64,000 bases of DNA from Apostichopus japonicus (Eukaryota; Echinodermata; Holothuroidea; Aspidochirotida; Stichopodidae). The DNA is taken from contig NC_092561.1 of NCBI RefSeq assembly GCF_037975245.1, positions 1,154,501 through 1,218,500 of the forward strand, read 5' to 3'. The position numbers and the translations under genes were made by a program. The notes under the pieces are model-generated. The model had not been told where the DNA came from. It did not search any database and worked only from the letters and a program-made list of their open reading frames with translations. Shown piece by piece: positions 1,053 through 59,630 of this stretch. Positions within the stretch are counted from its first letter, which is position 1. Each line of letters starts with the position of its first letter.

Positions 1053-4017
1053 GTGATGGGTCAGTTTGCTACATGCGTACCAGTGATGTTTCAGACGCAG
1101 ACACCAGTCTAACATCTATAATTACCAAAGTTAATTGCGAGGTATCAAATGACTCGAACCATGTCATTCGATTTGATACCGAAGTCGATGTCTCCCTCTC
1201 TGGTAAGCGAATATTTATTGAAATGTGTCAGAACGTTTTTCTTTTTCAAAGAAAAAATAATCAGCTTTTTTTTATAACGATTACAACATTGATAACAATT
1301 TGAAAAGCACTGATCCAGCTCCGTCAGCATTCATCATCATCAGCCTTAGCAACCAGCCACAAAATCCCATTTGAAAATTTAGGTCATAACTTACACGCTA
1401 GTATATAAAGACCCCCCCCCCCCGGCCCCACCCATACCCAATTAGAATTCAGTCTGGCAACTAGGTCACGTCACTAAAGGATTTGCGATTTGGATATACA
1501 CAACGCCTTTGTTCTTTCCTCACACACCAAATATAGAGTTGTTAAAGATGTTTGATCCTTCAAATGATAACACCATCGTACCAACCGGGGATGTCATCGG
1601 TTCTACCCAAACCGCCATCAAGTCTACCAATGACGTCATCGATACTACACAGAAAGTTTTACAATCTACATCCCAGGAGGATTCCACAACACCAATCAAC
1701 CAGTAGTGTGTATTACAAGACAATGAAACAACACAAGGTAGGCCTATATCATGCTTAGGATTATGTATACTGCTTGCAGCACGAGAAATTACAACTTTTA
1801 AGGTCTGCTGTATAGACCCCAACTATAGCACGCTATCATGGAAAAAGTTTCTGGAGAGAACGTAAACGACCTGCCTTGGTCGTAAAATGACCTCTTTTTA
1901 CCAATTAGTCTGCAGTGCCTGCCACATATGTTTTCTTGTATGAGGGTCTTTGTGTGAACGCTGTATGATTAACTACACTGTAGACATGAACATATATCCA
2001 CACAGTGTTTACACAAGGAGCCATTATAATGGTGTTAAATTAAGTAGCTATGCAGGCTAATTGTGGATCCCGAGGTCGATTTACGACCGTGGCACCTTGA
2101 TTACGTAATCAGAAAACTTTCCTAGCTATAGGGTGCTATAATTGGAGCCACTAAAGCAGATCTTTAATGGCATCTTGTTGCTCTGTTTATAGCTCCATAC
2201 TCAAATGAAGGAACACAACAGCTCTTATTCCGAAACGATTAGCCTACAGCTAAAGATATTTGTGATCCAGGCTATATATGTGAGTCAAAGATAGTTATGC
2301 TCTTGTATGAGTGTTTCCACTGGCTAAGGTTATGCGTGCTATAAATTTGCTATTTCAAGCAGTTCACTGTTGGTACAAAGCGTATACAATTCTCACAGAA
2401 ATATCTCGGGAGTCGTGTAGGAATTAAAAAATAAAGAAAAAAGAAGTACCATGATGCTTAGATTATAGACCATAACACCAAAAATAAATTGACCTGAACT
2501 TTTCTTTCCAAAAGGACAAATTGTAGCATATGTTGCATGTTCGTCATGATCAGCTGTTCAATGTTAGAGAATCCGGAAAGAAAATTGTGTTAGTTACATA
2601 TTCACGACTCAATGGTCTCACATTGTTAAAATTAATCAAAACTGGCCAAAAATCTTAGCATATTTTGATGTATGATTATGACTGTTTCCAGTATCCCTTC
2701 ACTGGTTTACGTCAATTCGATTGCTTTATCTTTATCCAATCAAAGAATTCCAAACATCTCTTGTATAAATGACGGATATGATTTATCCCCCCTTCTAAAC
2801 AACATTGTTCGCTCATTTTCACAGTTGGTCTTCATACACATGTGTTTACATTTCTACCGCTCGAGTGCGAAGCGGATTCATATAGTCCACACATTTTCAT
2901 TGGAACCATTGCGAAGAACGTGACCTCAGGACGGATTTGTTACTCAGAAGTCAATGTTCCCGACATCTCTTTTCAACTTAATCCTAACGATGGCAACTTC
3001 TTTCTACTTCCTTCACAAGTTATTCCCGATCAAAATGTTTACAACTCTAGAAGATTTTCGACAGTTATAATTACATCCAATGAGAAGATTGAAGTGTACG
3101 GATATCAGGAATGCAAGTCCCGCCCAAACACTGCCTCTGCTTTCCGTGTTAACGAAGTAGCATATCTCGGGACCGAGTACCGGGTAAATATTTATTGGAA
3201 AAAGGGGATCAGTCAATTTGGGGTAGTAGCAACAAGTAGCGGAATAACGTCGATAATCGTACATCATAGTGCAATCGGTTCATTGGAAGTCACATTAAGG
3301 CAATATGAGGCTTATTATTACGGTGCTAACTTAGATATTACTGGCACACACATAATTTCTGATCAGATTATTTTCGTTATAGCAGGAAACACTCAAGAGG
3401 CAGTAGTCGAAACATTACTTTATGGTACAGATGGATTCTGCGAGTCTCTAGACCCAATGCCAAACTGGGGAACTAACTTCTCGTTTGTCGCTTTCCCCGA
3501 GGAAGATACGAACTATCAGATACGTGTTCTGTCGCATTACAATGACACAGAGGTAAGAATTACCAGCCGGGCGAATGAAAGCGTCTCGATGATGCAAGGT
3601 GGAGAATATCTGATCAGGCTATACAATAACGCGTCATCCATTATTCACTCTATTAAGTCATCTCATCCAATTTCTGTATCGGAGTTCTTCGGACGAGTGG
3701 CCATGACCAACGTCCCTTCTCTGCCAGAGCAGGGTTCGTCCATGTTGTTGTTACCTGTCTTCGTGCTCGAACGATTTGGAAGAAAATACTTCATCACGAT
3801 TTGGGTCAGTCCGACCGGTATCGGAAATCCTCTCTATTTGGATGACTCAATCATAACACCGGATGTTTTGGGCACCGATAGTTTTGGAAATGCAATATTA
3901 CAAATACCATGTACTGCAGGCTTGCATATTCTCGTCTCTAATATTACGGTTATTAAGATGGCAACAGTTTCCGGTTTTACGGATCGTCAGTCTTACTCTT
4001 ACGTCATACATTCATAA
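1053..4017 (+). pseudogene. IgGFc-binding-protein-like gene with nonsense codon in exon 3
   Basis: Three exons are visible: 1053-1202, 1537-1737 and 2825-4017. All have AG acceptors and GT donors in phase 1, and each matches an exon of the inverted gene at 31611-35236 (the first is 150 bp in both). The last exon gives about 397 residues resembling the N-terminal IgGFc-binding domain of secreted mucin-like FCGBP relatives, with blocks such as YNSRRFSTVIITSNEKI and GTNFSFVAFPEED and several N-glycosylation sites (NVT, NDT, NES, NAS, NIT). In exon 3, codon 1704-1706 is TAG where the partner has AAG (Lys), 11 codons before a donor that is still in phase. Translation through normal splicing would therefore stop before the main domain. 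Either this is a recent pseudogene, or an exon-skipped form or a start inside exon 4 rescues it. The signal-peptide exon is not in the window. Confidence 0.8.
1704..1706 (+). other. In-frame TAG stop in exon 3 of the left IgGFc-like gene
   Basis: Reading from the acceptor at 1537 in the phase set by both neighbouring exons, CAG at 1701 is followed by TAG. The rest of the exon stays open to a GT donor at 1738 with unchanged phase. This points to a single substitution, not a wrong exon boundary. Confidence 0.8.
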
Positions 4018-31610: not shown

Positions 31611-35236
<3,626 letters not shown>

Positions 35237-40307: not shown

Positions 40308-41993
40308 ATGGCTATGACTATGGCACAAAGAAGGGCGTTAGGCATGACCTTAGAGAGCCTGTCTGGGGAACTGGATGTTACCCATGTAGTTCGTTATCTC
40401 AGAAGTAAAGACATTCTTACAGAACCTGACGAGGACACCATCAACGCAAAAGGCACGGATGCAAAGAGAGTCACAGAGTTTGTCCAAATTATCAAAAAGA
40501 GAGGGAAAAGAGCGTATTCAGTTTTCAAAGAGTACTTGGAGGAATGTCAAGGATCGGGAAAACTTGCAAGAGAACTGGAAGATAATTTAAACACTTCCGA
40601 GGTACGTAAAAGTAATATAAGCTTACTTGCATCATCAAGCCAACAATATTTATTAGTTGTGTATCTGAATTATGTTAAACCGTTGGAAATATGCGAGGCA
40701 GCTTCCGATATACTTCATGCAATGTTGTCTACTAATTGGTCTTCCGGTTAAGAGGAACAAACCCATCCTGATAAACTGTACGCGATGAAACATGATGCAA
40801 TAGTAGCTAAAAATTATTGAGAAATCAAGCACATCAGTCAAAAGCAGGAGCAAAGCTAGAATACATGGTTCTTGGGAAATTGTAAACAAACTTATTGAAC
40901 AAGTAGGCGATTGCAATGCAGGAATTGATAGGGAAGTATGTTCACCCTCTTTGTACAACAATACAGACATAAATGTGACAAGTATAATTAGATAACTGCA
41001 AACACAAACCAGGCGATTCTAGACAGGAGCAGAGTTTCCCAGCAGACGTCACGTCACAGGACTGACGGAACATACATCACTGATTACATGGGTAGCACAT
41101 GTTGTTGGTGACAATGTTTAATATGACGAAATCGAAATCGAAAAATATGATTGCCATCGTCATCTCGCCGTGTTATAGGCAAAAGCTTCTAAAGAAAAAC
41201 AGAAAACCTTTCACTAGATAATAGGATTACATTAAGCATGTCTTCGTTAACTTGACATTGGTATTCTGCCAAGTCGGTGCGGCAATCGCCATTGTAAAAT
41301 CATCCAGCGGTTAGACTTCGTGAGTTTTTTTTGTATTTAAAATTCATTCCAAACTCTTTGTTTTTGTAGATACAAAGTGAAAAGGGGAAACAGATAGAAA
41401 GATGGAATACTTTTGACGAGAAATCCCCTTTTTTCAAATGTCAGCACAAGCGCATTTGTCATTATGAGGATATTCCTGGCGAGATTAATATTCTTTTAAT
41501 CGGGAAAACTGGATCTGGCAAGAGCGCCACCGGAAATACAATCATCGGGAAACCTTACTTCAGAACTAGTGGAGCAAGTGGTTCGGTAACACGAACAATA
41601 GACGTAGAGAATACCAAAGAGGCTCGATTTAACATCACAGTCATTGACACTCCTGGACTTTTTAACACCGACGAAAGTTTTGAAAATGGCATTTCGATGG
41701 CTGAAATCATGAAAAAGACGTTACGTCTCAAACAGGGAATTCACCTCTTTCTCCTGTTGATTAACTCCGTTCGATTCACAGAGGAAGACGAACAAACCAT
41801 TGATGTGTTGGAGGTATGTCTGACTTGATGTCTTGAACAAAACTATGATATTTCATGACAGGCCCATATTATTTTAAGATATATTTAATGTACCTTTCAT
41901 TGCAGCATACAGGGTTTGGTATGTTAGCAACCTATCAAGTGTCGGGTTAGCTTTTTCGTTTCATATCAGTGTGGACATAAGCACAATGGCAAT

Positions 41994-42187
41994 TCAGTAA
42001 CTCATCACGTTTATCAACACGAACCGACACAAAACCCCATTCGAAAATCTTTCTTTAGGAAGGAATCTCGTGTCCTCCCCACACTTTCAAAATCAGTATA
42101 GGGAGGAAATAAAGACAATGGTAAGACAGTAACTCATCACATTTATCAACAGGAACCGGCACAAAACCTCATTCGAAAATCTTCAGT
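41994..42187. repeat. 133-bp period tandem duplication in intron 2
   Basis: CAGTAACTCATCAC...TTATCAACA...CATTCGAAAATCTT occurs twice (at 41994 and 42127) with a few differences, inside the second intron of the disrupted CARD-AIG1 gene. Confidence 0.75.
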
Positions 42188-42516
42188 TAAGAAGGATTGC
42201 GTAATCTCGTGTTGGGGCAACATGAGTTCACATTGTTACTACATGTTCATTAATGCACCCAGTGGCATCAAAACACATTTACACACGACATGACTTGCAA
42301 TTACAAAATGCTGCTTTCGCTTTTGTGTTACTTCAACAGAAAGTCCTCACTGAAGATGTTTTCAGCAAGTGCGTGGTGGTTATTTCCAACGCACGCGCCA
42401 AATTTGGTGGGAAGGCAATGCAATCCTTGAAAGACACTATCAGTGGCGGATCCAGGATTTCGCCGAAGGGGGGGCCCAGATGGGAAATGCCTAATCGTCC
42501 TGGGTCAGGGGTCTAA

Positions 42517-43484
42517 TGGGAGTGGGTGCCCCCCTCCCCTTTGGGAAATTTCACAAAATATGGAGGTCCTCGGTGCAATCTGGTGCTACTTTTCGTGAAA
42601 GTTTGGAGTAAAATTTATTTCCAATAAATCATGTATTCATGGTTTGCCGGGCATATATTTGCAATTTCGAGCAATGAGCTGAGATTTACGTCTTTGAGGA
42701 GTAAGTGGTGATGCAAACTACTTTTTACCACGCTACTCCAGGCCATTTCATCTTGGATGCCCCCTTCCAGATGGAGACTATTGATGCAGTCAGAGTGCCC
42801 CTCTCACCTTCACTTTATCAGAATGATGGTGTACTCTTTTTGCAAATTTATTTTACAAAAAATACACGTGGGATATCATTAAGGTGCAATAATTTCATGT
42901 TCTTAAAAGTAGCCTCGTGAGGTCACGCGATACTAGGGTAAGTTGCAATGAAAAACTACCATTCTTACATGGATCACTAGCCACTGGATGACTATGTTCA
43001 TGTCATGTGGGTATCTCGATCGAACAGATGACGGAATAAACCTCGAACTATCTCATGACTCCATTCGATGGTGGTCCACAGAACACATAATTAATAGAGT
43101 TTATCCCCCATAAGGAACTTTCTGAGCAGCGATACATAAATTTCTAACAGCTATATCTAGAATCAATGATTCGAGCATAATAAATAGTCATTTTGAATAC
43201 TTTTAATAATGATAGCAACAATAACAGATAAACAGAATAGCTCAAATTTAGAAAGGGCAGTCTGTATCCAGAGGAAGTTATCCAATCTCAGTCTACGGGC
43301 AGCAAAACCGTTAAAACATGGAAGTCATGACATCATGGTACTGATAATAGTCAACTCTGAAATGTTGTCATCATCAAAATAACCCCTTGCCATAGGGACC
43401 AAAAGAGTGTGGACTGTCAATACTCATACAAAGAAAGGCACAGCTATATTATCTCAGAATGTTCCTGAATAATGGAGGAGATTG
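42517..43484. other. Left non-coding part of the hAT transposon
   Basis: This stretch lies between the left terminal repeat and the transposase stop codon. It should hold the transposase 3' UTR. No further feature was recognised. Confidence 0.5.
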
Positions 43485-46400
43485 TCAGTCTGCAAGTGGG
43501 TTGCAAAGCATCATTCGTCTGGTATTCCTCCTTGCATACATGTCAATTATAATGTCGTAGTCAAGCTTTATTGACTTGTGTACGTATAACAACACCAGAG
43601 CATTCAGCCGTTCGTTCTCCATTGTTGACCTTAGTTTGTTCTTGATTAACTTCAATGCCGAGTGGCTTCTTTCTACAGATGCAGATGACACTGGTAACAT
43701 TAGCAGGAGCCTCAAGATTTGAGTGATGTTGGGGTAGAATGATTTATTCATACGGTTCAGAGTTTCCTCTATATCCTTTGGCCTGTCTTCGATGGTACTA
43801 CGCCATTCTCTCTTCCACAGGTTGATCTCATGGGTGAAGGTATTTGGAGAGGGCATGTCTGCAGCATAGAACTGGTGAATATCGGACATCTCCTCATCAT
43901 TAAGATTGTGTATGTGTGCGGGTAGTAGGCTGAGAGATCTAGTTGCCACTTTACTGGCATGCGTGAATCTGGAGTTGAATTCTGAGATTAAGTGGTCTAG
44001 GTATGTTATGAAAATAGCTTTCCTCCAGTAATCTTCAGGAGAGTTGGCTTCGATATTGGAGCGCATGGTTTGCTGACCACATCTCCTAGGCATAGATAGT
44101 TCAACTTGAACATATTCCTTCCCCGCTAGAGTTTGTGCGTTTTGCCAGACCTCTCTGAATTTATCCTCGGATGTTGCTCTAACATCCTTAAACTCATCGA
44201 GCACAAGTTTGACTTTCTCGTGCGCTGTTATTATGTCCTGCGTCGGACCCTGTAGAAGTAGGCTCAGTGATTTTAGGTATCCTGAAAAATGAAGGTTTAC
44301 TTTGAACGCTACGATTAACTTGGGACTTGTCAAATGGATGAGCAGTCCATTAGCCTCCGTCACTGATTTGGTGTCCCAGTTGCCATCCCCAGATGAAATT
44401 GATGCCAAACAATCAATCACAGCCTCGAACATGTCATCTAGGTCTTGGAGTGCAGTATGGCGTTCCACCCAGCGTGTCTCACACAACATCTTCACCTTGC
44501 GCTTGTTTATCAAGCCTGCTCCCTGATCAGGTACTGCTGATGATTCTCGACGTTCACGGTTTATTTTGTCAATTGAGGCCTCCAGACACGTTTGCTTCTT
44601 TGGGGAATATCTAAAAAACAAGCCGACCTGTTTGACCGCGTCAAGCATTACTTGCATCTCTGGCAAATTACACGACTTTGATACAGCAAGGTTCAAGTCG
44701 TGGCTCATGCAGTAGTAGTACACAGCTTTGGGGTGCAAGTTCGAAATTCTGGAGGCACATCCACGCCTCAAACCAGCCATGTTTCCGGCACCATCATAAG
44801 ACTGCGAGCGGCATTCATTCATGCTCAGGCCGATTCCGTCAATCTTATCAAGAATCTGTTTAGCAAGGGCCAATCCTGTGATATTCTCACACTCGATAAA
44901 TTCAACAATTCGCTCAACAGGCTTGTCATTGACTAGGTAACGTAAGACTAACCCAAGCTGTTCTTTATTACTGACATCTGTTACCTCATCTGCCTGAATA
45001 CCGAACAAGGGGCCATGGTGTTGCGCGTTGATTTCTTTGATGATATGCTGCTGAATGAATTCCTTAATGCAGTTCAATAATTCATTTTGGGTGGTTTTTG
45101 AAGAATACGTAGCACTCCTCGCGCACGTTTCAAAATGTGCTTCTAGTGTTTTGTCTCCTGATTCGATACAAAGCCGAAGGAGGCCATTGAAATTTCCACT
45201 ATATCCAAATGCATCCTCCCCGGCATGACCTCGCATAGCAATACCATGACGACCACAGTATTCCACGCACCGTAGAATAGATCTGAGAACATCTCTGTTC
45301 TTTGCAATTTGTTCCATTTTACGTGCATTCAGCATCAGGTCAACACGACTGGCCTCGTTTTGAGTTGTGCGAACGAAACTCTCCATCAGTGCTGCTGAGG
45401 TTTTGTGATATTCACACACCGAATGTTTCTTCAAATCAGCTAGTGCATCCTTCCAGTTGGTATAAGATTTGTTGATGAGGAACTGGGCACGGCAACTGGT
45501 ACGATTTTCAACAGGGAACAGGACACATGCCAGACAGTAGAGACCACTTTCTTTCAACGAATAAGTGATGTATTCAAACTGTGTAAACCATTTGTGTTGG
45601 CACGACCGTTTCCTCACTCCGGATTTCTTTGCTTTATCTGGATACTCTTTACATGGGAATATATAGGATGCGGGAGGAATTCTGTCCTTAATTAGCTTGT
45701 ACTTGCTATCGTCATTAATTCTCTTTCCCACACATTGGCTAACGTCGTACATGGACGAACGGACACCAACATCTGGGTCTTCTCGATCCTCATCAGCTGT
45801 ATTACTGTCATGTTGGCTGGGTTCCATGTTGTCAGTAGGATCTGCCATTCCCTCTGCATCAGATTCTTCTAATGCTGAAGAAACCAAGAAAATACAAGAT
45901 TACACAGTGACACAGTTATTCAGACTGGATTATAAATTTTGACCCCCGTGCCAGATACTGAAATGTGTAGAGGACAATCTAATGGGTGTTGGGGGGGTTG
46001 TTCTGTGTAACTACTATGGAAAATATTTGCGTATGCGTGCGGTGACGTATTTGCATATTGTACTGCTCGTTTTGTTAGCTGGGTTGCAGCGGGCTAGTAG
46101 GGTTAGGCCAAAACACGCTAGCTAGTAGGCCTTCAGAAGAGACATAATGCATGCAACTTTTAGTCTTACTTGGTCTACTTCGTTTCGGAGGTGATTGACT
46201 ACCATCACTTTCATCGGAGGTTTGGTTTTCTCCCAAGACGCTATCTTCCTCCGAGGATAGCCCCTCCTCATTGCGGCTACCTGGTGTTGAATTAGCTGAT
46301 ACTGGTGAGTTGTGTTGTCTCATGGGATGGTCTTCAGCATCTCTCCTGTCAGGAGACTGTATCAAGCTGAAAACATGAGAATAAAATTATTAAAGTAAAT

Positions 46401-48441
46401 GTTACTGTTATTACACATCATGTTTGGATGGGTTGAATGTGTGTGTGTGTGTGGGGGGGGGGGGTTAGAGGGGGTCATATTGGATTTTAGTCAGCATAAA
46501 CTACATAAGTATAACGGTTTTTCTTGTTGATTCTATGATTTGTTCATCTCCTTCCCAACACGAAAGGGGCGGCAACACCGGACGCCGCGCCGCATGCATA
46601 TTTTTTCCCAGAGACGAATTGCGAATAAGGGCAATTCCCATTAAGAATAAAATGAGACAACACCCACTGTCCCAAAAACACTTTCTGGACCTTTTTTTGT
46701 GATTCTGACGTCAGAATATAAAAGAACATGCTTCATTCCCCCTGAGCTGATGAGTATTTTCGTCGCCCGAAACAAATTTGTGAATTCCTGAAGAACCCTT
46801 ATCCGTCATGGGGAATAAAAATATGCGCGCCGGACCGCGCCGAAACCCGCTTCAAAATGAAGTTGAAAATATGCTAGCTTTCACGGTGCCGTGCAGCGCC
46901 GACAATTCCAACAGCCAATTACAGGCACTGATTTGCTGACTCTAAAACAAATGACATAAATCTTTGTGGAAACGGTGTTGGGAAGGAATCCGGTAATATA
47001 TTGAAATAATCTGTACCGTTGCCAAGTTTAGTGCAGTGCGGCGCAGCGCCATGCCCGTAGTCAAGGAGGGGGCAGGGGGAAGGTGAGGTGGGCAGGAAGG
47101 CGGCACCCCTTGAAAAAATCTAGAAAACATAACAAAATATGCATTTCGCCCCCCTGGAAAAATCTTCGCCCCCTGGACATTTTTCACCCCCCTCCCTCGT
47201 GAACATGGTCTGGCTACGTGCCTGCGAAGCGCCTCAATGCTAGTATAAACTCAATTGGAAATATGCAGAACATATCAGGAAAGGCATGTTTGCCTTTGTA
47301 GCCTCAAAAAAGGAGTTTACCTTCTGGAAATTCCAGTTGGGGTTATCTCGAAACATGCCGTAGTTTGGTTGAGAGACTTGGCTAGATCCTTGGTGTAGGA
47401 AACAGCTGCTTCCAAAGATTCAATTTTCATGATAACAGCTCTACCACTGGGACTACTCTCTCCAGATAAATTACGAGAGTGTGAATCGAAGCACAGAAAT
47501 GTACCATTACCCTTGTAATAGAAAGCGCTGGTGTATCCTGGTGAGCTGCCAATAGTCACAAATAAATATTGGCTACGTTCCACAGCATTTGCAAGCGCCT
47601 CCGGCAAAGCATAAACCAGTGAATCGTTGTTGGATTCGGTGGCCTCAAGTGTTCCTGAGTATGGCTGGTGCTTTGTTATATCCAGACGCTCATTGTCCAC
47701 AGTGATGACATCGGGGATTTCTTCAACTAATAAATACTGGACATCCCTCTCCTCTGCTATTTGTCTATATAGTTGATCACCGCTGTAGAGTACGTGATCA
47801 ACATCCTCTGTCGTGAAACTGACATCATCGATAACACCGAGACAACGATCCACGAGAAATCGTAGAGACATGCCCACACATTGTTTTCCACCGTCCGCGA
47901 AATCACCTTGATGTGAAGAACCACTAGCAAGACAGCGTCGACCAGTCCTAAAAGTAGGAATGAAGGGAAAAAAACTGAGACACATCCACACAATGTGATT
48001 AGATACTCATCTACAACATTTTGTAGCACTTGGTTAGCTGCGAAAATACAAAATTCTGAAAATTGTGGACAGAGCATCAGAGTTAATATAAAAAAAGGGG
48101 CCAACAATTAGTATGATATTGTTGAAATTTTCCTGTTGGGAAAGGGCAGAACTGTAGCCAGAGTGGCCCTGGCAGGAGGCATAGCAAAGCCCCAGGAACT
48201 TTGTCATCCTCCCCACCCAGAGACTTTCACCCTTCTATTGTTTCGCATCTCCTAACTGTCAAATTTAATTACCGTCGGGCCTATACAGGAAGATTGAGTA
48301 GATAATGCTGAGGACCCCCAGCCTATTCTCCTCAAAGTATCATAATTGATTGAAATATAATTGTATATACCTCTTCCCCCTCTGGAATGCTTGGAAAATA
48401 TCCTGCTGCCCACGTTGTTTTCCTCTCGTTCTCTTTCCCAT
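43485..48441 (-). CDS. hAT transposase (ZMYM1-like) with C76-like cysteine protease domain
   Basis: Exons (minus strand): 48371-48441, 47321-47947, 46170-46366 and 43485-45874. They total exactly 3,285 bp (1,094 aa) with matching phases. Residues ~40-240 look like a papain-fold protease of the C76/OTU kind: GKQCV with Cys47, GDQLY, and a later FDSHSRN with Asp178 and His180 as the likely acidic-His pair. An acidic Ser-rich linker follows. From ~360 comes a TTF-type zinc finger (YCLACVLF, then HSVCEYH). The RNase-H-like transposase core has Asp in QADEVTD (~594), Asp in SYDGAGNM (~659), the CMSH motif (~687) and TRWVERH (~766). The C-terminal hAT dimerisation block reads LPVSSASVERSHSALKLIKNK, with Glu ~1033. 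No stop or frameshift interrupts it, so the element may be recently active. The protease assignment is by motif and would need a profile search. Confidence 0.88.
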
Positions 48442-49363
48442 GCTGCTTACTATATAGGACTCAATCTGAAATGGAGATATATAATACAGTTACGAATCAG
48501 AATCAGGCAATGAAAGCATTGCATTAATGACAAGATTTGTGATATCGGCTGAGGTTTGTGGTGACTTCCTGCAGTGACCACTCAGCCTACCTAGGCCGAG
48601 AGAGCCCCAGGCTGGAGGTAGGAGCCGGGGGGCACTGGGGGCACGTGCCCCCACTTCCCCCAATACAGCAATTGCGCCCCATTGAAATGTAAAATATGCC
48701 CCTCCTATATGAATAGGCCGAATGTTTTTTTTTCGCTCCCAAACAATATTAAAATATAAATAATAATGGAATGTTTTCAGTGGCAGCGGCGGGGGGCAGA
48801 ATTTCAGGAGGGGAGGGGGAGTGGGGAAAATAACACTTAATAGGGCTCAAATTTCCACAAGTTGCCCCTGGAAAGTGGGGACAGCTGGGGTGAGCAAGAC
48901 CATTTGTTCTGTGGGGGGGAGTTGCCCCTCATGCCCCCCCCCCCATAGCGCCGACACTGATTATTCTGTATTGTTGGTACGACGAGTGGGAATTGTGTAA
49001 TGGGAAAGTGCCCCTCTGATGTTGTGCTGCCCACACCCCCCACTTTTTGGAAGCCTCCTGCCCCCCCCCCCGACCCCAGGCTACGCCAACATTTACATGC
49101 ATCAAAATCCCTCCCTGTGCTAAATCCCAGGCTAGGCTGGTCCTTGCACGGTTGCACCATTCCCTCGTGTATGGTTGGCTGCCCGAACCTCCAACGGAGG
49201 TTATTGCCAAAAGGTAGGCCTACAGTGCCTATGCGACCAGACGGCCACAAATTTCCGACTAGTCCCATATTCCCAAAAAGCGAAATTTTCGCACTAAACT
49301 ATTGTGCTAAATCGATATATTCTTGCTGTATTATTATTCTTGCTAAGTTCGAGAGTGACACAA
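48442..49363. other. Promoter side of the transposase and old repeat fragments
   Basis: The transposase 5' UTR probably splices here (TTTCAG about 20 bp before its ATG). Stretches with runs of GGGGGCACGTGCCCCC and CCCCCCCCC are remnants of other short elements. Confidence 0.4.
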
Positions 49364-49522
49364 CAGGGGCGTAGCCACTGATCGCAAGTCCCCCTTCCCC
49401 CCAAAAAATCGCTTGCCTTAAGCATTAATAGCCTAGCATATGGAGCCTGGAACCTCCAGGCCCCCGAGATGATTGCCAGTCCCCCTCACCCCCCAAAAAA
49501 ATCTATCCTGGCTACGCCCCTG
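49364..49522. mobile_element. Short hAT-type MITE nested in the transposon
   Basis: The ends CAGGGGCGTAGCCA and TGGCTACGCCCCTG are inverted repeats around ~160 bp with no coding capacity. The flanking 8 bp, TGACACAA and CCAGACAA, agree at 5 of 8 positions, so the target duplication is decayed or misjudged. Confidence 0.65.
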
Positions 49523-50817
49523 CCAGACAATCAAAATTGTGTTCCAAGTTCCCACAGTACAGAAGAGTGTGTAGTAATTTCATAACATTAGGCCACACAC
49601 TGTAGATATGGTACCGCAGTGATGGTATTGTTAGGGAAAACAGGCTATCATGTGTGGATAGCCTAGGCTTAGATTGAGTCTGTCGTGCGATCGTACCACA
49701 CTCGTTTTCTCACATTTTTTAAACTAATAATTTCATACACACACTGTGCGTGCTTATATGTAGCATGTAGCATGTATTGCTTTCGTCATATACTCACGTC
49801 TAGTTGCGAGTCGTTTCCCTCTCTGCTAGCTTCGTGCTTACTGGATCCGGACTGCCGCGAACGTACGTTCAAAGTGCATCGTGCTCAGTGCTTCCACACT
49901 CAAAATTTGTTTTTCCCGAAATGGAATCCAAATTTCCCGAATCGGCTCGGTATTTCCTGAAATTTCCAAAGTGCCGTACGGCTCACCCTACCCAACACCT
50001 ACATTTATTTACAAATAATTTTCACACTTCGAGACTCCATATGATTTTTTTTCTTTTAATTTTTTCATCACGCATGGGGCCCTTTCCCTCGAACGCGGTA
50101 AAAAAAAAAAAAAAAAAAAAAAATCAGGATTTTCAAAAAGGGGGGGCCCGGGCCCCCCGGGCCCCCCCCCTGGATCCGCCCCTGACTATCGCAGAAGTGA
50201 AAGAACACGGAGGAAAATTTGTAAACCTGCTGGAGCGAGTTCAAGATAGAATAGTAGCTGTCGAAAACTGCTTTGACGACAATTCTACGAAAGAAATCCA
50301 ACGCCAGAAACTTCTTTGTTGTCTTGCCCAAGTCATATCTGATAACAAGGGATCAACATACAATTCTTTTGAATGGACAAATAGCAAATTGAGACACTTT
50401 AAGTGCGGACGACAAAAGAAATTCATCGTTGTGATCAAAGAATTGTACAAAATGAGAGAGCTACTTAATCATTATTTTGAAGAGGATTTTCTTCCCAGTT
50501 CATCGGTAGGCGATATGGACAATTTATTACAAATTTCCAGAAACAATGTAAAACGCATAATGGCAAAATCCGGTGTAAAGGGGATTCCGAACATCACTAA
50601 AGAAGATGTTCTTGAGCACATTGAATACTTCATCCAGGACAAACAACAACTTATTGCAGAGATGAAATGCTCGAAAGTTGAAGTGCTCGAGCAACGACGA
50701 AAAGAATGCCACAAAGTAAAAGGACAGATTAATAATGAGACAAAGACTGAACGTTTGCAAAGTAATAAAGTTTTGCCTGGTGTACCATATAAGCACGGTA
50801 ATACAAGCAACAGTTAG

Positions 50818-54837: not shown

Positions 54838-57800
54838 ATGGCTATGACTAAATTACAAAGGGAGACCTTAGCTAAGACATCGGAGGTGCTAACTGAAGAC
54901 CTAGATGTGAGTCCGGCAATAATTCACTTAATAAGCAAAGGGATCCTTAACGAAAATGACCGGGAAAACATCATCGCCAAAGTTACAGAGAGAGAAAAAG
55001 TCATGGAATTTCTGAAAATCATCAAAAAGAGGGGAACGAAAGCTTACTCTACATTTTATGAGTACTTGAAAAACTGTCGAGGATCAGAACATCTGGCCGA
55101 AGAACTGGACAAAAAGTTAAAAGAGGTAATTGAATTTGTAGCTAGTGTAATTTGGCATTGTCAAATTGATGTATTATGCTAACCTTGACGTTTTAAATGG
55201 GATGGTTAACTAAAATCTCTTTTTGCTGCATTGTCTCGCTTGTGCATGCTATTTACAGGATTGAATATTCCATTCAAACTAAGCAATAAAATGCGCAAGG
55301 TACAACACTGCCGAATAACAAATTTATTGAATATGTAGCCTCCAGTTTCGGATACGAGACTCTTTGTTATAATTTTTACATGCATATTAATATTCTTGTG
55401 GCAGGCAATGTCAGAATTTTATCAAGGAGAAAAAAAATTATTACAGTGCTCTGAAAACCCCATCTCAATATCTTGCCCCTAACTCGAGATACGGTTGATT
55501 GAATGTAACCTACAGTTTGTTGACTATAGCTAAACCATATTCCTGCCAGGAAATCCCAGTTGGTGGTCTGTGATCTCTTCAGGACAAATGTTCTTCAAAG
55601 GCTAATATAATCTTGTTGATTTATCCTTGGAAATTGATACATTTGTAATGCTTCCTTTGCTCTCATTGTTCTCTTTAGAACTTCATCAAATGCAATTTTT
55701 TTTTAGAAATATTGTTTTCTTCTGTGGATTAATGATTGGAATATAAAGAAACCAAAAAACAACTTCATCTGAACTGCCCTTAGATGACATTCACGCATTC
55801 TGCTGTTGTCAGATGCATTTACAAAATATCACCAAACAAAATGCTCAAAGAGAATTTGTTTTTGACCTAAACATGCAGAAAATCTTCAACAGTGTTGCTA
55901 ATCAATATATTTTTTAAATTCCCCTTGAGACATCACTAATGAGGAGGCATGCTGCAGACACATAGTAACATGGTAGGAGAAAAAAAAATATCCCCTACAA
56001 GTATTAAACAGTTTAGGAAACCCAGGGATGTACTTAAACAGTCGTGGATGATTATATAGATCTCCAATCATGTATTTTCTCCTGACCTTTTATTGCAGCT
56101 GGAAACAGAAGCTACGAAACAGATAGATAGATGGAAAGGATTTGAAGATAAATTCCATTACTTTAAGTGTACCCATGAAACCATTTCCTCTTATCAGGGT
56201 ATCCCTAAAAAGATTAACATACTTTTGATTGGTAAAACTGGATCCGGCAAGAGCGCCACCGGAAACACAATAACTGGAAGTTATTGTTTCAAAGCACTTG
56301 GTAGCACCGAGTCGGTAACTAAAACAATAGAAATTAAGGCTACCACAGAGGAAAGGATTAACATCACAGTCATTGACACCCCTGGACTCTTTGACACCGC
56401 CAAGTGTAATGAAAACGAGACTATTCAAAACGAAGACTTGATGCTTGAAATAGCAAAAACTATGATAAGTTTTAATACAGGTATCCACCTGTTCCTGTTG
56501 GTATGTAGCTCTACGGTAAGATTCACAAAGGAAGAACAGGAAACCATTAAAGTGATAGAGGTAAGTAAAAAAGTCTTTCTCGACCAGAAGAAGGGATTAA
56601 AAGGTAGAATCGTTTACATACTCCAGTACCGATGTATTTAAATGCTTGTTGGTCTGTTAACAAACAGATGATGGGATAATAAACTCCCAATATCTGTCCA
56701 TAAATTGGACCATTTGATTTCAATCCCGCATCTTTGAACTCCTTCAGTAGCCACAACAATTTCATAATCAGGGTGATGGTGGAAACGGCGGCGAAACTTT
56801 GAACCAAACAAAGGGATTAGGAGGGCAGGGTGGGGATTCCATGCAAGGAAATTGATGGACAGTATGCTTTGTATATAGATAAAACATATTGAAGTGATAA
56901 AAGCCTGTTTTTGGTGGTCAAATGGGTTTCGAGGTCAACAGAGGTCAAATTTAAAGAAAAATAACACCTTTTCTAAAACGGAAATTTGGATTTCCAACTT
57001 ATTTTAACATTTCAACCCTGTGGCAACTCAGATCACATGCGACGTCCATCAAAAAACTAATAAGCTTCTTGTAATCATTGTGATATAAATGTGAGATATT
57101 TTCAAGCTTCACTTCTTAAGACAGGCCTATCGTTTTTACAATGTTTTTATGATTTCACATCTACTGACATCAGATTTGCTTCCATGTCCCCTAATAATAA
57201 TGTATCTTTACTTAAATTAATATGCCTTCAAACATACTTCATTTCTCATATTTGTTTAAATTTCGAACCTTTCAGAAAATTCTAGGCAAAGATATCTACA
57301 GCAATTGCGTAGTGATTCTGACAAACGCACGTGCTCAATTCGGTGGTAACAAGATGGAACCATTGAAAGATTACGTTAAAAGAGAAATCGAAACTGGAGG
57401 GAAGTTTGCCGAACTTCTTGCTCAAGTTAAAGGAAATATAATAGCTGTCGAAAATTGCTTTGACGACGATTTCTTAGAAAAAAGACATCGCGAGAAATTT
57501 CTTTGTTTTCTTGCTCAAGTAATAGAAGCTAACAAAGGGTCTGTGTATTCCAACATATTATTTGAAGCTGCTCACAAGAGAGTAGAACAGCAAGAGATAG
57601 AGCGAAAGAAGAGAGTTACGAAAGGAAATGAAATGACAGCAATGAAGAGCTTGCTACGTAATTTCCTCATTAAGAAATATCTCAACACTTTATCAGAGCA
57701 GCAGCTCGATAGCATATACCTAGTCGTATCGAAAGATATAGAACACATAATGCATCAATCAGGGGTGTTGACACTTGAGTCAATCACGAAAGACGATGTA

Positions 57801-59630
57801 CAGGAATATGTGAGTTGTTTCATTCAAGAGAACATAATTTTAATATCGAAATTAAAGGAAATGAAACTTCAAGAATCAAATCAACGAAAAGAGCTCGAGA
57901 AGATGGAGGCGATTAGTCAAATGCAGCTCCTGATCTTGTCATTCGCTGGTAATTATTTGAGAAATCAATCAAGGGAGGATCTAGAAATACTAATGAAAAA
58001 CAGAGAAGTGCCTAGGGATGCAATAGATCATTTTGAAAACGGTTTAAAAACATCCAAAGTTAATGTTACAACAGAAGACATCCAGGAATATGTCATGAAA
58101 CTTTTTTTTGAAATTCCATCGGAGATCCAACGGTACTTAGATGACAAAAACTTAGAACGCGAGTTGGAAAACAAGTTAAAACAAGTCGAAAGAGCCAACG
58201 CAATCCAGGTTGCAATGAATAAGCTGCGAGAAGAACTTCCTGATGCTTTAGAACGTTATACAGACGATGAATTAAGACAATTAATCAGTGAGTTGAAATC
58301 TAAGGAGATTTCTGGTGAATCTAACTGGAAATCATTGGTTCGTGAGCTTCTGAGGGATACTGTTCCTTTTGACGAATTTTTACAATTGTGTTCCGAGCAA
58401 AGTAGTAACAGTCTTCAGGGTATTTTGGAAACTTTTCTCGAAAAACGAGAAAAAACACAGGAGGCAACAGAAAAGCAAGAACAGGAACATTTACTAAATA
58501 CTTCATTTAGTCAAATCTCAATTGCAATCAAAGGAAACCTGAAGCCGTTTCTTACAAGTAAAACTGTAAGTGATTTAGAAAAGTTAGAAGTGCAGATAAA
58601 GCAAGGCAAGGTTCCTGCAGAAATTATCACTCAAGTATCGAACAATCTATCAACAGAACAGAAAGAATTGTTAGGTGAAGATGCAATAGAGAGAGAAATA
58701 GTAAAGCAACTTACGGAGCAAAGTCAGCTTATAGAGGAATGTAGGGAAAGTGCAAAAAAGTGTTTTGCGGGATCAACAAAGGTGAGCATCAAATTGAGAG
58801 GTAACGCTAAAATATCTAATGTGAAAGTAGGTGACGAAATTCTCGTCTACGACGAGAATGGCCATTTATTCTATGATAAGGTTTATCTTTTTTCTCATGC
58901 AATAGAAGATGAAAGTATTACATTCATCCGGTTGAAAACATCTTCTGGTAAAGAACTGTTTATTTCTCCGGGACATTTGTTGCCTGCTGGAAGCCTTTGC
59001 AGGAACGTCTCCGCAACAGACATATCGATTGGTGACATCATATTTACATTGCAGAACAGTGAAATGACTTCCGACACCGTCACCTCGATAACATATGAAC
59101 TATGTCGAGGAGCGTATTGCCCGATGACAATGCATGGGACTATTGTTGTCAATGACGTAGCAGCATCTTGTTATACAACGTTCTTCCCAGCTCGTCTTGC
59201 ACACGTTTTGCTCTCTCCCAACAGATTCCTCTTCGGTTATTTACCTTCGCGTCTCTTTCATGGGTTATTTCCTTATGATGCTGAGGAAGGAATGCCTATC
59301 CTGCTCCTAAGATGTCGTAACATGATCACTACATGGCGTTCTCTTGTAAGAATGTATAACCCTTGGGCATATCAAAGGAAAAAGTTTGGAATCATAAAGA
59401 AACATATAGATCATCGGAAAGACTTTTTTACAAGCTTGGGGACACGGCCAACCACAAACACTTGCTTTTTAATTCCAATAGGCCTAATTATTATATTCCT
59501 GGGAAGTGCCCAGTTCAACACACCACTCAGCAGTCTTGCAATCTATTTCTACGCAAATAGTTACATCAATTTTGTCAATATTTTCATGCTAAGTTTTTTT
59601 TCTTCAAAATATCGAATATTTGGTTCTTGA
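54838..59630 (+). CDS. CARD-AIG1 GTPase-helical repeat-Hint/Hog fusion protein
   Basis: Exons: 54838-55125, 56099-56560 and 57276-59630. All junctions are phase 0 and the gene encodes 1,034 aa. Residues 1-96 form a CARD (ILNENDRENIIAKVTEREK, then IIKKRGTKAYSTFYEYLKN). Residues ~136-330 form an AIG1/GIMAP-like GTPase with GKTGSGKS (141-148), DTPGLFDT (189-196) and the conserved IIAVENCFDD (305-314). The usual TKxD base-recognition motif reads TNAR (266-269). Residues ~370-735 hold four related helical units. Cys746 starts a Hint domain of the Hedgehog C-terminal type (details in the separate entry). The last ~55 residues contain two hydrophobic segments (~980-995 and ~1003-1028), so the end may bind membrane. 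The start is the ATG in AAGATGG, the same context as the paralogue at 40308. Family knowledge: CARDs recruit adaptors or caspases, AIG1 GTPases polymerise on membranes, and Hint domains self-cleave. Their combined job is unknown; innate immunity is inferred. Confidence 0.92.
57633..58750 (+). other. Four helical repeats of ~65 residues between GTPase and Hint
   Basis: Units begin at about residues 370, 466, 560 and 661. Units one and two share the closing pattern I(T/Q)(K/T)(D/E)D(V/I)QEYV. All four have a leading MKxLL/MQLLIL/IQVAMNKL/QISIAI helix followed by a Y/F-L-x(4-6)-DL/QL/EL helix. Charged linkers between them could form coiled coils. The sister gene at 40308-50817 has only one such unit (NITKEDVLEHIEYFIQ). 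I do not recognise a named family. Confidence 0.6.
58761..59240 (+). other. Hint/Hog autoprocessing domain
   Basis: The domain starts CFAGSTKV at Cys746. SPGH follows, with Ser814 68 residues and His817 71 residues after the cysteine, and then HGTIVVNDVAASCY with Cys882, 136 after it. In Drosophila Hedgehog the nucleophile Cys258, Thr326, His329 and Cys400 are spaced 68, 71 and 142. The block around VKVGDEILVYDENG and the GTIVVNDV...SCY block are typical of the Hog type. Differences are Ser for the TxxH threonine and His (residue 791) where Hedgehog has Asp303. In Hedgehog, Cys attacks the preceding peptide bond and the ester is then resolved by cholesterol. Here the residue before the Cys is Lys, not Gly. 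Confidence 0.88.

What the first reader, a model, noticed from the sequence alone, without database searches (positions are those of the whole stretch)
54838..59630. CARD, AIG1 GTPase and Hedgehog-type Hint domain in one protein
Seen: three phase-0 exons give one 1,034-residue frame with CARD, GKTGSGKS/DTPG AIG1 GTPase, helical repeats and a Hint/Hog domain with its key spacing intact. Known: CARDs and AIG1/GIMAP proteins belong to death and immune signalling; Hint domains self-cleave and are mostly known from Hedgehog and related secreted proteins, inteins and bacterial toxins. Inference: a cytosolic sensor may release its signalling part or a membrane-seeking C-terminus by self-cleavage after nucleotide-driven assembly. 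I do not know of a described protein with this order.
Basis: partly seen in the sequence, partly recalled or inferred. Interest (0 to 1): 0.95.

Follow-up and report, generated by a model that had tools for sequence, protein, structure and literature searches.

The report
Sea cucumber CARD–GTPase–Hint protein
A sea cucumber gene joins a cell-death signalling domain, an immune-type GTPase and the self-cutting, fat-attaching domain of Hedgehog in one protein that seems to work inside the cell; the combination has been reported before in lancelets, and whether it cuts itself is untested.

Summary
Three phase-0 exons encode 1,034 residues with CARD, AIG1 and Hint domains, each above its Pfam cut-off. 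The translation equals residues 289-1322 of a public Apostichopus japonicus protein. Of nine close database hits (eight A. japonicus, one unnamed source), eight list all three domains. The order is not undescribed: CARD+AIG1+HINT was reported in 2025 as 'unique to amphioxus among animals' (PMC12373286), which these proteins contradict. AIG1+Hint is older (fungus, coral, snail).

The Hint keeps Cys1, His72 and Cys143 in 11 of 11 sequences. Hedgehog's general base Asp46 is His, and Thr69 is Ser, in 11 of 11. A sterol-recognition-like segment follows with Hedgehog's HPR motif (H 10 of 11; P and R 11 of 11). Engineered fly D46H keeps cholesterol activity and accepts more sterols (PMC9163320). I propose that the module cleaves at K745/C746 and sterol-anchors a cytosolic CARD-GTPase. 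Cleavage, adduct and function are inferred, not shown. The hydrophobic C-terminal tail is not seen in the ten aligned relatives.

The parts
54838..55125 (+). Exon 1: ATG and CARD (residues 1-96)
   Evidence: CARD nearest in PDB to CED-3, RAIDD and Apaf-1 CARDs
56099..56560 (+). Exon 2: linker and first half of AIG1 GTPase with P-loop GKTGSGKS (141-148) and DTPG (189-192) (residues 97-250)
   Evidence: nearest solved structures GIMAP7, GIMAP4 and GIMAP5
57276..59630 (+). Exon 3: rest of AIG1, helical units, Hint, SRR-like segment, tail and stop (residues 251-1034)
57627..58760 (+). Four long-helix/short-helix units that end directly before Cys746 (about residues 368-745)
   Evidence: helix pattern; profile similarity clear only for units 1 and 2
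58761..59195 (+). Hint fold (residues 746-890): C746 (pos 1), H791 (pos 46), S814 (pos 69), H817 (pos 72), C882 (fly Cys143 equivalent)
59196..59345 (+). SRR-like segment (residues 891-940) with HPR motif H893, P898, R900 and a second helix around EGMP...CR
   Evidence: helices there in the paralogue model at low confidence; HPR motif described in PMC7906309
59346..59627 (+). C-terminal tail (residues 941-1034), one TM-like segment 975-999, not seen in the 10 aligned relatives
40308..42440 (+). Upstream broken copy: CARD exon (from 40308), AIG1 exon (from 41370), start of third exon (to 42440); public model P0002 fuses these to this gene
42441..50184 (.). hAT-like insertion that splits the upstream copy (end motifs CAGTGGCGGATCCAGG / TGGATCCGCCCCTG)
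   Evidence: transposase-like ORF 43485-45899 minus, DUF4371 and Dimer_Tnp_hAT
50185..50817 (+). Rest of the upstream copy (end of AIG1, first helical unit); no Hint match after it before this gene

Best explanation
The gene encodes a cytosolic GIMAP-type GTPase with an apoptotic-type CARD and a Hog module (Hint plus sterol-recognition-like segment) at its C-terminus. Proposed course: (1) Cys746 attacks the K745-C746 peptide bond (N-S acyl shift) helped by His817 and Ser814; (2) the SRR-like two-helix segment docks on a membrane and offers a sterol, whose hydroxyl is activated by His791, the natural counterpart of the D46H base swap; (3) the CARD-GTPase-helical part leaves with a sterol ester at its C-terminus and is held on sterol-rich cytosolic membranes, as transmembrane helices hold some vertebrate GIMAPs (recalled); (4) GTP-driven assembly there clusters the CARDs and recruits a CARD caspase or adaptor. 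Shown: domains, active-site letters and their conservation. Inferred: every chemical step, the sterol, the location and the output.
For: Pfam hits. Catalytic letters: C1, H72 and C143 in 11 of 11; HPR motif H in 10 of 11, P and R in 11 of 11. The Hint is more alike than the AIG1 part in 6 of 7 pairwise comparisons and more alike than the helical part in 7 of 7 (P0007: Hint 73%, SRR-like 68%, CARD 67%, AIG1 65%, helical 42%). Fly Hint with His at this site keeps structure, pKa and catalytic efficiency and gains >200-fold on coprostanol (PMC9163320 section 11). The Hint of the window aligns to solved fly Hint domains, the D46H mutant 6tyy included (title). The HPR motif and following leucines matter for cholesterolysis and sit on the membrane in simulations of human SHH (PMC7906309 passages). 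The CARD resembles CED-3, RAIDD and Apaf-1. Paralogue P0009 (BSL78_09939) is listed in a body-wall proteome table, so at least one family member is translated (PMC12924188 passages).
Against: I saw no cleavage, adduct or location data for any member. Hedgehog's Asp46 and Thr69 are replaced in 11 of 11. The HWY hinge of the second SRR helix of SHH is missing. P0010 has Q for the H of HPR, and in the comparison with P0010 the Hint (50%) is less alike than AIG1 (58%) and CARD (54%). The residue before the cut is K here and varies among relatives (E, K, G, T, I), where SHH has Gly. Hedgehog processing occurs in the secretory pathway (recalled), while this protein has no signal peptide-like stretch. 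The 11 sequences are related and partly redundant (P0001 and P0008 are 96% identical), so 11 of 11 overstates independence. The Hint part of both models is of low confidence.
Confidence: 0.42

Rival explanations
1. Release by hydrolysis: the Hint cuts at K745/C746 without lipid transfer, and the cut licenses the CARD-GTPase part, as autoproteolysis does in NLRP1, CARD8 or PIDD1 (recalled).
For: Cys1 and His72 kept in 11 of 11 while Asp46, needed for sterol transfer in Hedgehog, is replaced. Fly D303 mutants (A, N, R, E) cleave with DTT more efficiently (PMC9163320 passages).
Against: The SRR-like segment with HPR is kept and would be idle; His at site 46 supports sterol transfer in the fly enzyme.
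Confidence: 0.25
2. Self-cleavage with an adduct other than a sterol, or a slow cleavage gated by a ligand or by GTPase assembly, so that the Hint is the sensor.
For: It was not clear in 2008 whether the Hog domains of nematode Hedgehog-related proteins add cholesterol, and their SRR-equivalent region differs (PMC2362128 passages); the second SRR helix here lacks HWY.
Against: HPR motif complete in 10 of 11.
Confidence: 0.15
3. The Hint is a retained fold without catalysis, for example a membrane- or protein-binding module.
For: Thr69 to Ser and Asp46 to His in 11 of 11.
Against: Cys1, His72 and Cys143 are invariant where 44 of 145 Hint columns are; five named positions (1, 46, 69, 72, 143) would all be invariant with probability 0.002 if columns were independent.
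Confidence: 0.12
4. The public 1,322-residue model is right: one transcript joins the broken upstream CARD-AIG1 copy to this gene, giving two CARDs and two GTPase domains (the first cut short) before the Hint. This can hold together with any of the readings above.
For: P0002 exists with exactly this make-up; P0003-P0006 have two AIG1 units. P0007 starts seven residues upstream (MSEVTSK), in line with the leader LSEYHLK that P0002 reads here.
Against: The join uses a GT inside the end of the hAT-like insertion and an intron of about 12.4 kb (read from the letters). P0008 and P0010 start at MAMT without a leader, and P0003-P0006 have one CARD, not two, in the alignment.
Confidence: 0.15

Closest known systems
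Amphioxus CARD+AIG1+HINT GIMAP proteins (PMC12373286; section 10 read whole, other passages)
   Same: Same three domains in the same order; among the most recurrent amphioxus AIG1 architectures
   Different: Described as unique to amphioxus among animals; active site, SRR and adduct not discussed in the text seen. No amphioxus sequence was compared here. The orthology passage seen names no echinoderm among the species
AIG1+Hint proteins of coral (PMC3723955) and snail (PMC7053062), fungal GmGIN1 (PMC2362128); passages seen
   Same: AIG1 GTPase with C-terminal Hint/Hog
   Different: No CARD on the same protein stated for coral or GmGIN1; in the snail, CARD and Hint are both listed among AIG architectures, not shown together in the passages seen
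Hedgehog Hog domain (Drosophila Hh, human SHH; PDB 1at0, 6tyy)
   Same: Cys1, His72, Cys143, HPR motif with equal spacing
   Different: His for Asp46, Ser for Thr69, no Hedge domain hit, no signal peptide-like stretch, no HWY
Vertebrate GIMAPs
   Same: AIG1 GTPase; best solved structures GIMAP7/4/5 by sequence, GIMAP2/1/7/5 by paralogue model
   Different: No CARD or Hint known to me in the vertebrate ones (recalled)
NLRP1/CARD8 and PIDD1 self-cleaving sensors (recalled)
   Same: Works like: death-fold protein with built-in autoproteolysis (here only predicted)
   Different: Different cleaving domain; no lipid transfer known to me; not compared by any search

Membership tests
AIG1/GIMAP GTPases | AIG1 domain with P-loop and DTPG | tested here: met
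   PF04548 138.4 bits, cut-off 27; GKTGSGKS 141, DTPG 189
AIG1/GIMAP GTPases | GTP binding or hydrolysis | not testable with these tools
   needs biochemistry
CARD proteins | CARD fold | tested here: met
   PF00619 49.7 bits, cut-off 23.9; six helices at the N-terminus of the paralogue model
Hint/Hog domain (PF01079) | Profile above curated cut-off | tested here: met
   107.4 bits, cut-off 29.7
Hint/Hog domain (PF01079) | Cys1 nucleophile and His72 | tested here: met
   11 of 11
Hint/Hog domain (PF01079) | Thr69 of TxxH | tested here: inconclusive
   Ser in 11 of 11; T326A in the fly greatly loses activity; effect of Ser not seen
Hedgehog proteins | Asp46 general base | tested here: not met
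   His in 11 of 11; fly D303H is active
Hedgehog proteins | Hedge signalling domain and secretion signal | tested here: not met
   no Hedge domain among Pfam hits up to E 1; no hydrophobic window near the N-terminus
Hedgehog proteins | SRR helix 1 with HPR motif | tested here: met
   H893, P898, R900 with spacing 5 and 2; H 10 of 11, P and R 11 of 11
Hedgehog proteins | HWY hinge of SRR helix 2 | tested here: not met
   no HWY in the segment of any of the 11 sequences (alignment)
Hedgehog proteins | Sterol transfer | not testable with these tools
   needs biochemistry
Amphioxus-type CARD+AIG1+HINT proteins | All three domains in this order in one protein | tested here: met
   8 of the 9 hits P0002-P0010 by listed Pfam domains
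Amphioxus-type CARD+AIG1+HINT proteins | Common descent of the fusion | not tested
   no amphioxus protein was among the hits

The most novel reading that the evidence does not exclude
Sea cucumbers have a gene family in which the Hedgehog autoprocessing module sterol-anchors cytosolic CARD-GTPases: an intracellular immune use of protein sterylation outside Hedgehog, with a naturally evolved His general base that widens the sterol range, perhaps to the unusual sterols of sea cucumbers (the sterol point is recalled and speculative). The death-fold part is exchangeable (CARD, or a DED-like domain in P0028).
Probability: 0.35. Interest if true: 0.85.

Novelty: new member of a known kind. Interest (0 to 1): 0.55.

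Why it matters
If the module works as predicted, protein sterylation would not be confined to secreted Hedgehog and to Smoothened (cholesterylated at D95 by another route; abstract of PMC9828284 in the listing), and animals would have a way to place death-fold scaffolds on membranes by self-processing. A natural His in place of Asp46 gives a test of a base swap known to me only from an engineered enzyme. The sea cucumber family also shows that CARD+AIG1+HINT is not confined to amphioxus, so the fusion is either old in deuterostomes or arose repeatedly.

Tried and rejected
Artefact of exon guessing: rejected, since a public model and relatives carry the same join. Bacterial toxin-type Hint: rejected; Pfam gives the Hedgehog-type Hint at 9.9e-31, and a pretoxin HINT match appears only for P0010 at 0.002, below its cut-off (six proteins scanned). 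Conserved membrane tail: rejected as a family feature; 0 of 10 relatives in the alignment have it. P0008, almost identical in the Hint, ends at WRSF, but its model may be cut short.

Relatives elsewhere: three protein searches listed no amphioxus, coral or snail Hint protein; these searches need shared 5-residue words, and only the 7,992 candidates sharing most words were scored, so this is no evidence of absence. NCBIfam gave no hit for exons 1 and 3 and 11 hits for exon 2, all below their cut-offs. Structure: the model of exon 3 has mean pLDDT 61.4 (Hint blocks 22-64), and its best PDB matches, fly Hint 1at0 and 6tyy, are not significant (E 0.39 and 0.49). The paralogue model (P0007, pLDDT 69.7) matched GIMAPs (first 50 rows seen); the second look mostly covered model residues 141-363, so helical units and Hint were barely tested. 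A global alignment mispaired the CARD of the two-GTPase relatives P0003 and P0005 (20% and 16%); tblastn gives 47% and 50%. The codon score was trained on the same coding windows, which flatters them. Genome search: 9 of 9 tries did not complete, so copies in the whole genome were not counted.

Papers: passages of PMC3723955, PMC7053062, PMC12373286 (section 10 whole), PMC8529194, PMC9599816, PMC2362128, PMC7906309, PMC8195603, PMC4695875, PMC9163320 (section 11 whole) and PMC12924188; PMC8857920 and PMC7106946 are not held, so Zhao et al. 2019 was seen only as reported in PMC9163320 and PMC8529194. Searches for the architecture.
Full report
Observation. Pfam finds CARD (9-91, 3.7e-13), AIG1 (136-355, 2.8e-40) and Hint (743-902, 9.9e-31), all above their curated cut-offs. 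By sequence the CARD is nearest to CED-3, RAIDD and Apaf-1 CARDs and the GTPase to GIMAP7, 4 and 5.

Relatives. The first search gave 25 hits among the 7,992 candidates scored: P0002-P0009 from A. japonicus, P0010 from an unnamed source, and 16 GIMAP-type proteins without a listed Hint (14 fish, a snake, a scallop). By the listed Pfam domains 8 of the 9 (P0002-P0008, P0010) carry CARD, AIG1 and Hint; P0009 lacks CARD. A Hint-only search gave 10 hits, two of them new: P0027 (AIG1+Hint, N-terminus missing) and P0028. P0028 has a weak DED match (20.9 bits, cut-off 35.9) where the others have CARD. P0010 reads through CARD, AIG1 and Hint in one frame on a 5,225-base contig, which fits a transcript better than intron-bearing genomic DNA (inference). 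P0009, BSL78_09939, stands in a table of proteins differing between sea cucumber origins (fold change 1.65, P 0.0035); the study kept library proteins with two or more unique peptides. The text seen does not mark whether it is among the 12 of 64 proteins that stayed significant after correction.

Active site. Eleven Hint domains were aligned with the fly Hedgehog segment. Cys1 (746 here), His72 (817) and Cys143 (882) are kept in 11 of 11. Position 46 is His (791) in 11 of 11 where Hedgehog has Asp; position 69 is Ser (814) in 11 of 11 where Hedgehog has Thr. Of 145 Hint columns 44 are invariant, so five named positions would all be invariant with probability 0.002 if columns were independent; the sequences are closely related, so this is only a guide. 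Directly behind the Hint lies a segment of 50 residues with the HPR motif of the first SRR helix of human SHH at the same spacing (H893, P898, R900); the H is Q in P0010 only. The paralogue model shows helices at 915-931, 934-940 and 948-968 there, at low confidence. In human SHH this motif and the leucines after it are needed for cholesterolysis in cells, and the helix stays on the membrane in simulations (PMC7906309 passages). The HWY hinge of the second helix is missing.

Base swap. Asp46 (Asp303) activates cholesterol in Hedgehog; D303A cleaves with DTT but does not complete sterol transfer (PMC9163320 passages). Engineered D303H keeps structure and catalytic efficiency and gains >200-fold on coprostanol and >300-fold on epicoprostanol (PMC9163320 section 11). 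The sea cucumber proteins carry His there by nature. Whether other Hog proteins do so was not tested.

Conservation by domain. Against P0007 identity is CARD 67%, AIG1 65%, helical 42%, Hint 73%, SRR-like 68%. The Hint is more alike than AIG1 in 6 of 7 comparisons; the exception is P0010 (Hint 50%, AIG1 58%, CARD 54%). It is more alike than the helical part in 7 of 7. So the Hint is about as constrained as the GTPase. The tail 941-1034 has no counterpart in the 10 aligned relatives, a TM-like stretch at 975-999 and a codon score (-0.11) between the coding windows (0.11 to 0.51, the training set) and the non-coding windows (-0.21 to -0.70). I read it as a recent extension.

Neighbourhood. A second CARD-AIG1 copy lies upstream, from 40308, split by an insertion of 7,744 bases (42441-50184) with hAT-like ends and a hAT-type transposase ORF. 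No Hint match follows it before our gene. The public model P0002 joins this broken copy to our gene; the letters place the join at a GT in the end of the insertion. I judge this less likely than a gene that starts at 54838, though P0007 has a short leader (MSEVTSK) in line with the leader that P0002 reads.

Known or new. A 2025 pangenome paper reports CARD and HINT architectures of amphioxus AIG1 proteins, 'unique to amphioxus among animals', with CARD+AIG1+HINT otherwise only in a few multicellular fungi (PMC12373286 section 10); the species passage I saw names no echinoderm. AIG1 with Hint is reported in coral, snail and the fungus Glomus mosseae. So the architecture is known; the sea cucumber family, its Hog active site and its His46 are what this window adds. 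In the searches listed under Tried and rejected I found no paper on these sea cucumber proteins as Hint proteins; most subscription journals are not in the library.

Mechanism and verdict. The best reading is a cytosolic CARD-GTPase that cuts itself at K745/C746 and leaves with a sterol anchor (0.42). Hydrolytic release, another adduct or a gated cut, and a dead fold are the rivals; the longer public model is a separate question. Nothing here shows cleavage, and the two Hedgehog letters that differ could each lower activity.

Noticed in passing
42441-50184: hAT-like insertion that breaks the upstream CARD-AIG1 copy; ORF 43485-45899 (minus) with DUF4371 and hAT dimerisation domains.
   Followed up: partly
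47317-48006: ORF on the minus strand inside the insertion with a Herpes_teg_N match (1.2e-8); origin unknown.
   Followed up: no
2782-4017: ORF with IgGFc-binding domain (1.9e-21); 31611-32099 (minus) looks alike by eye but has no Pfam hit.
   Followed up: no
33666-34436: Long tandem array that reads (IHPS)n on one strand and (WMDG)n on the other.
   Followed up: no
P0028 residues 25-86 (no window coordinates): DED-like domain in place of CARD in an otherwise similar AIG1-Hint protein of unnamed source (below Pfam cut-off).
   Followed up: partly
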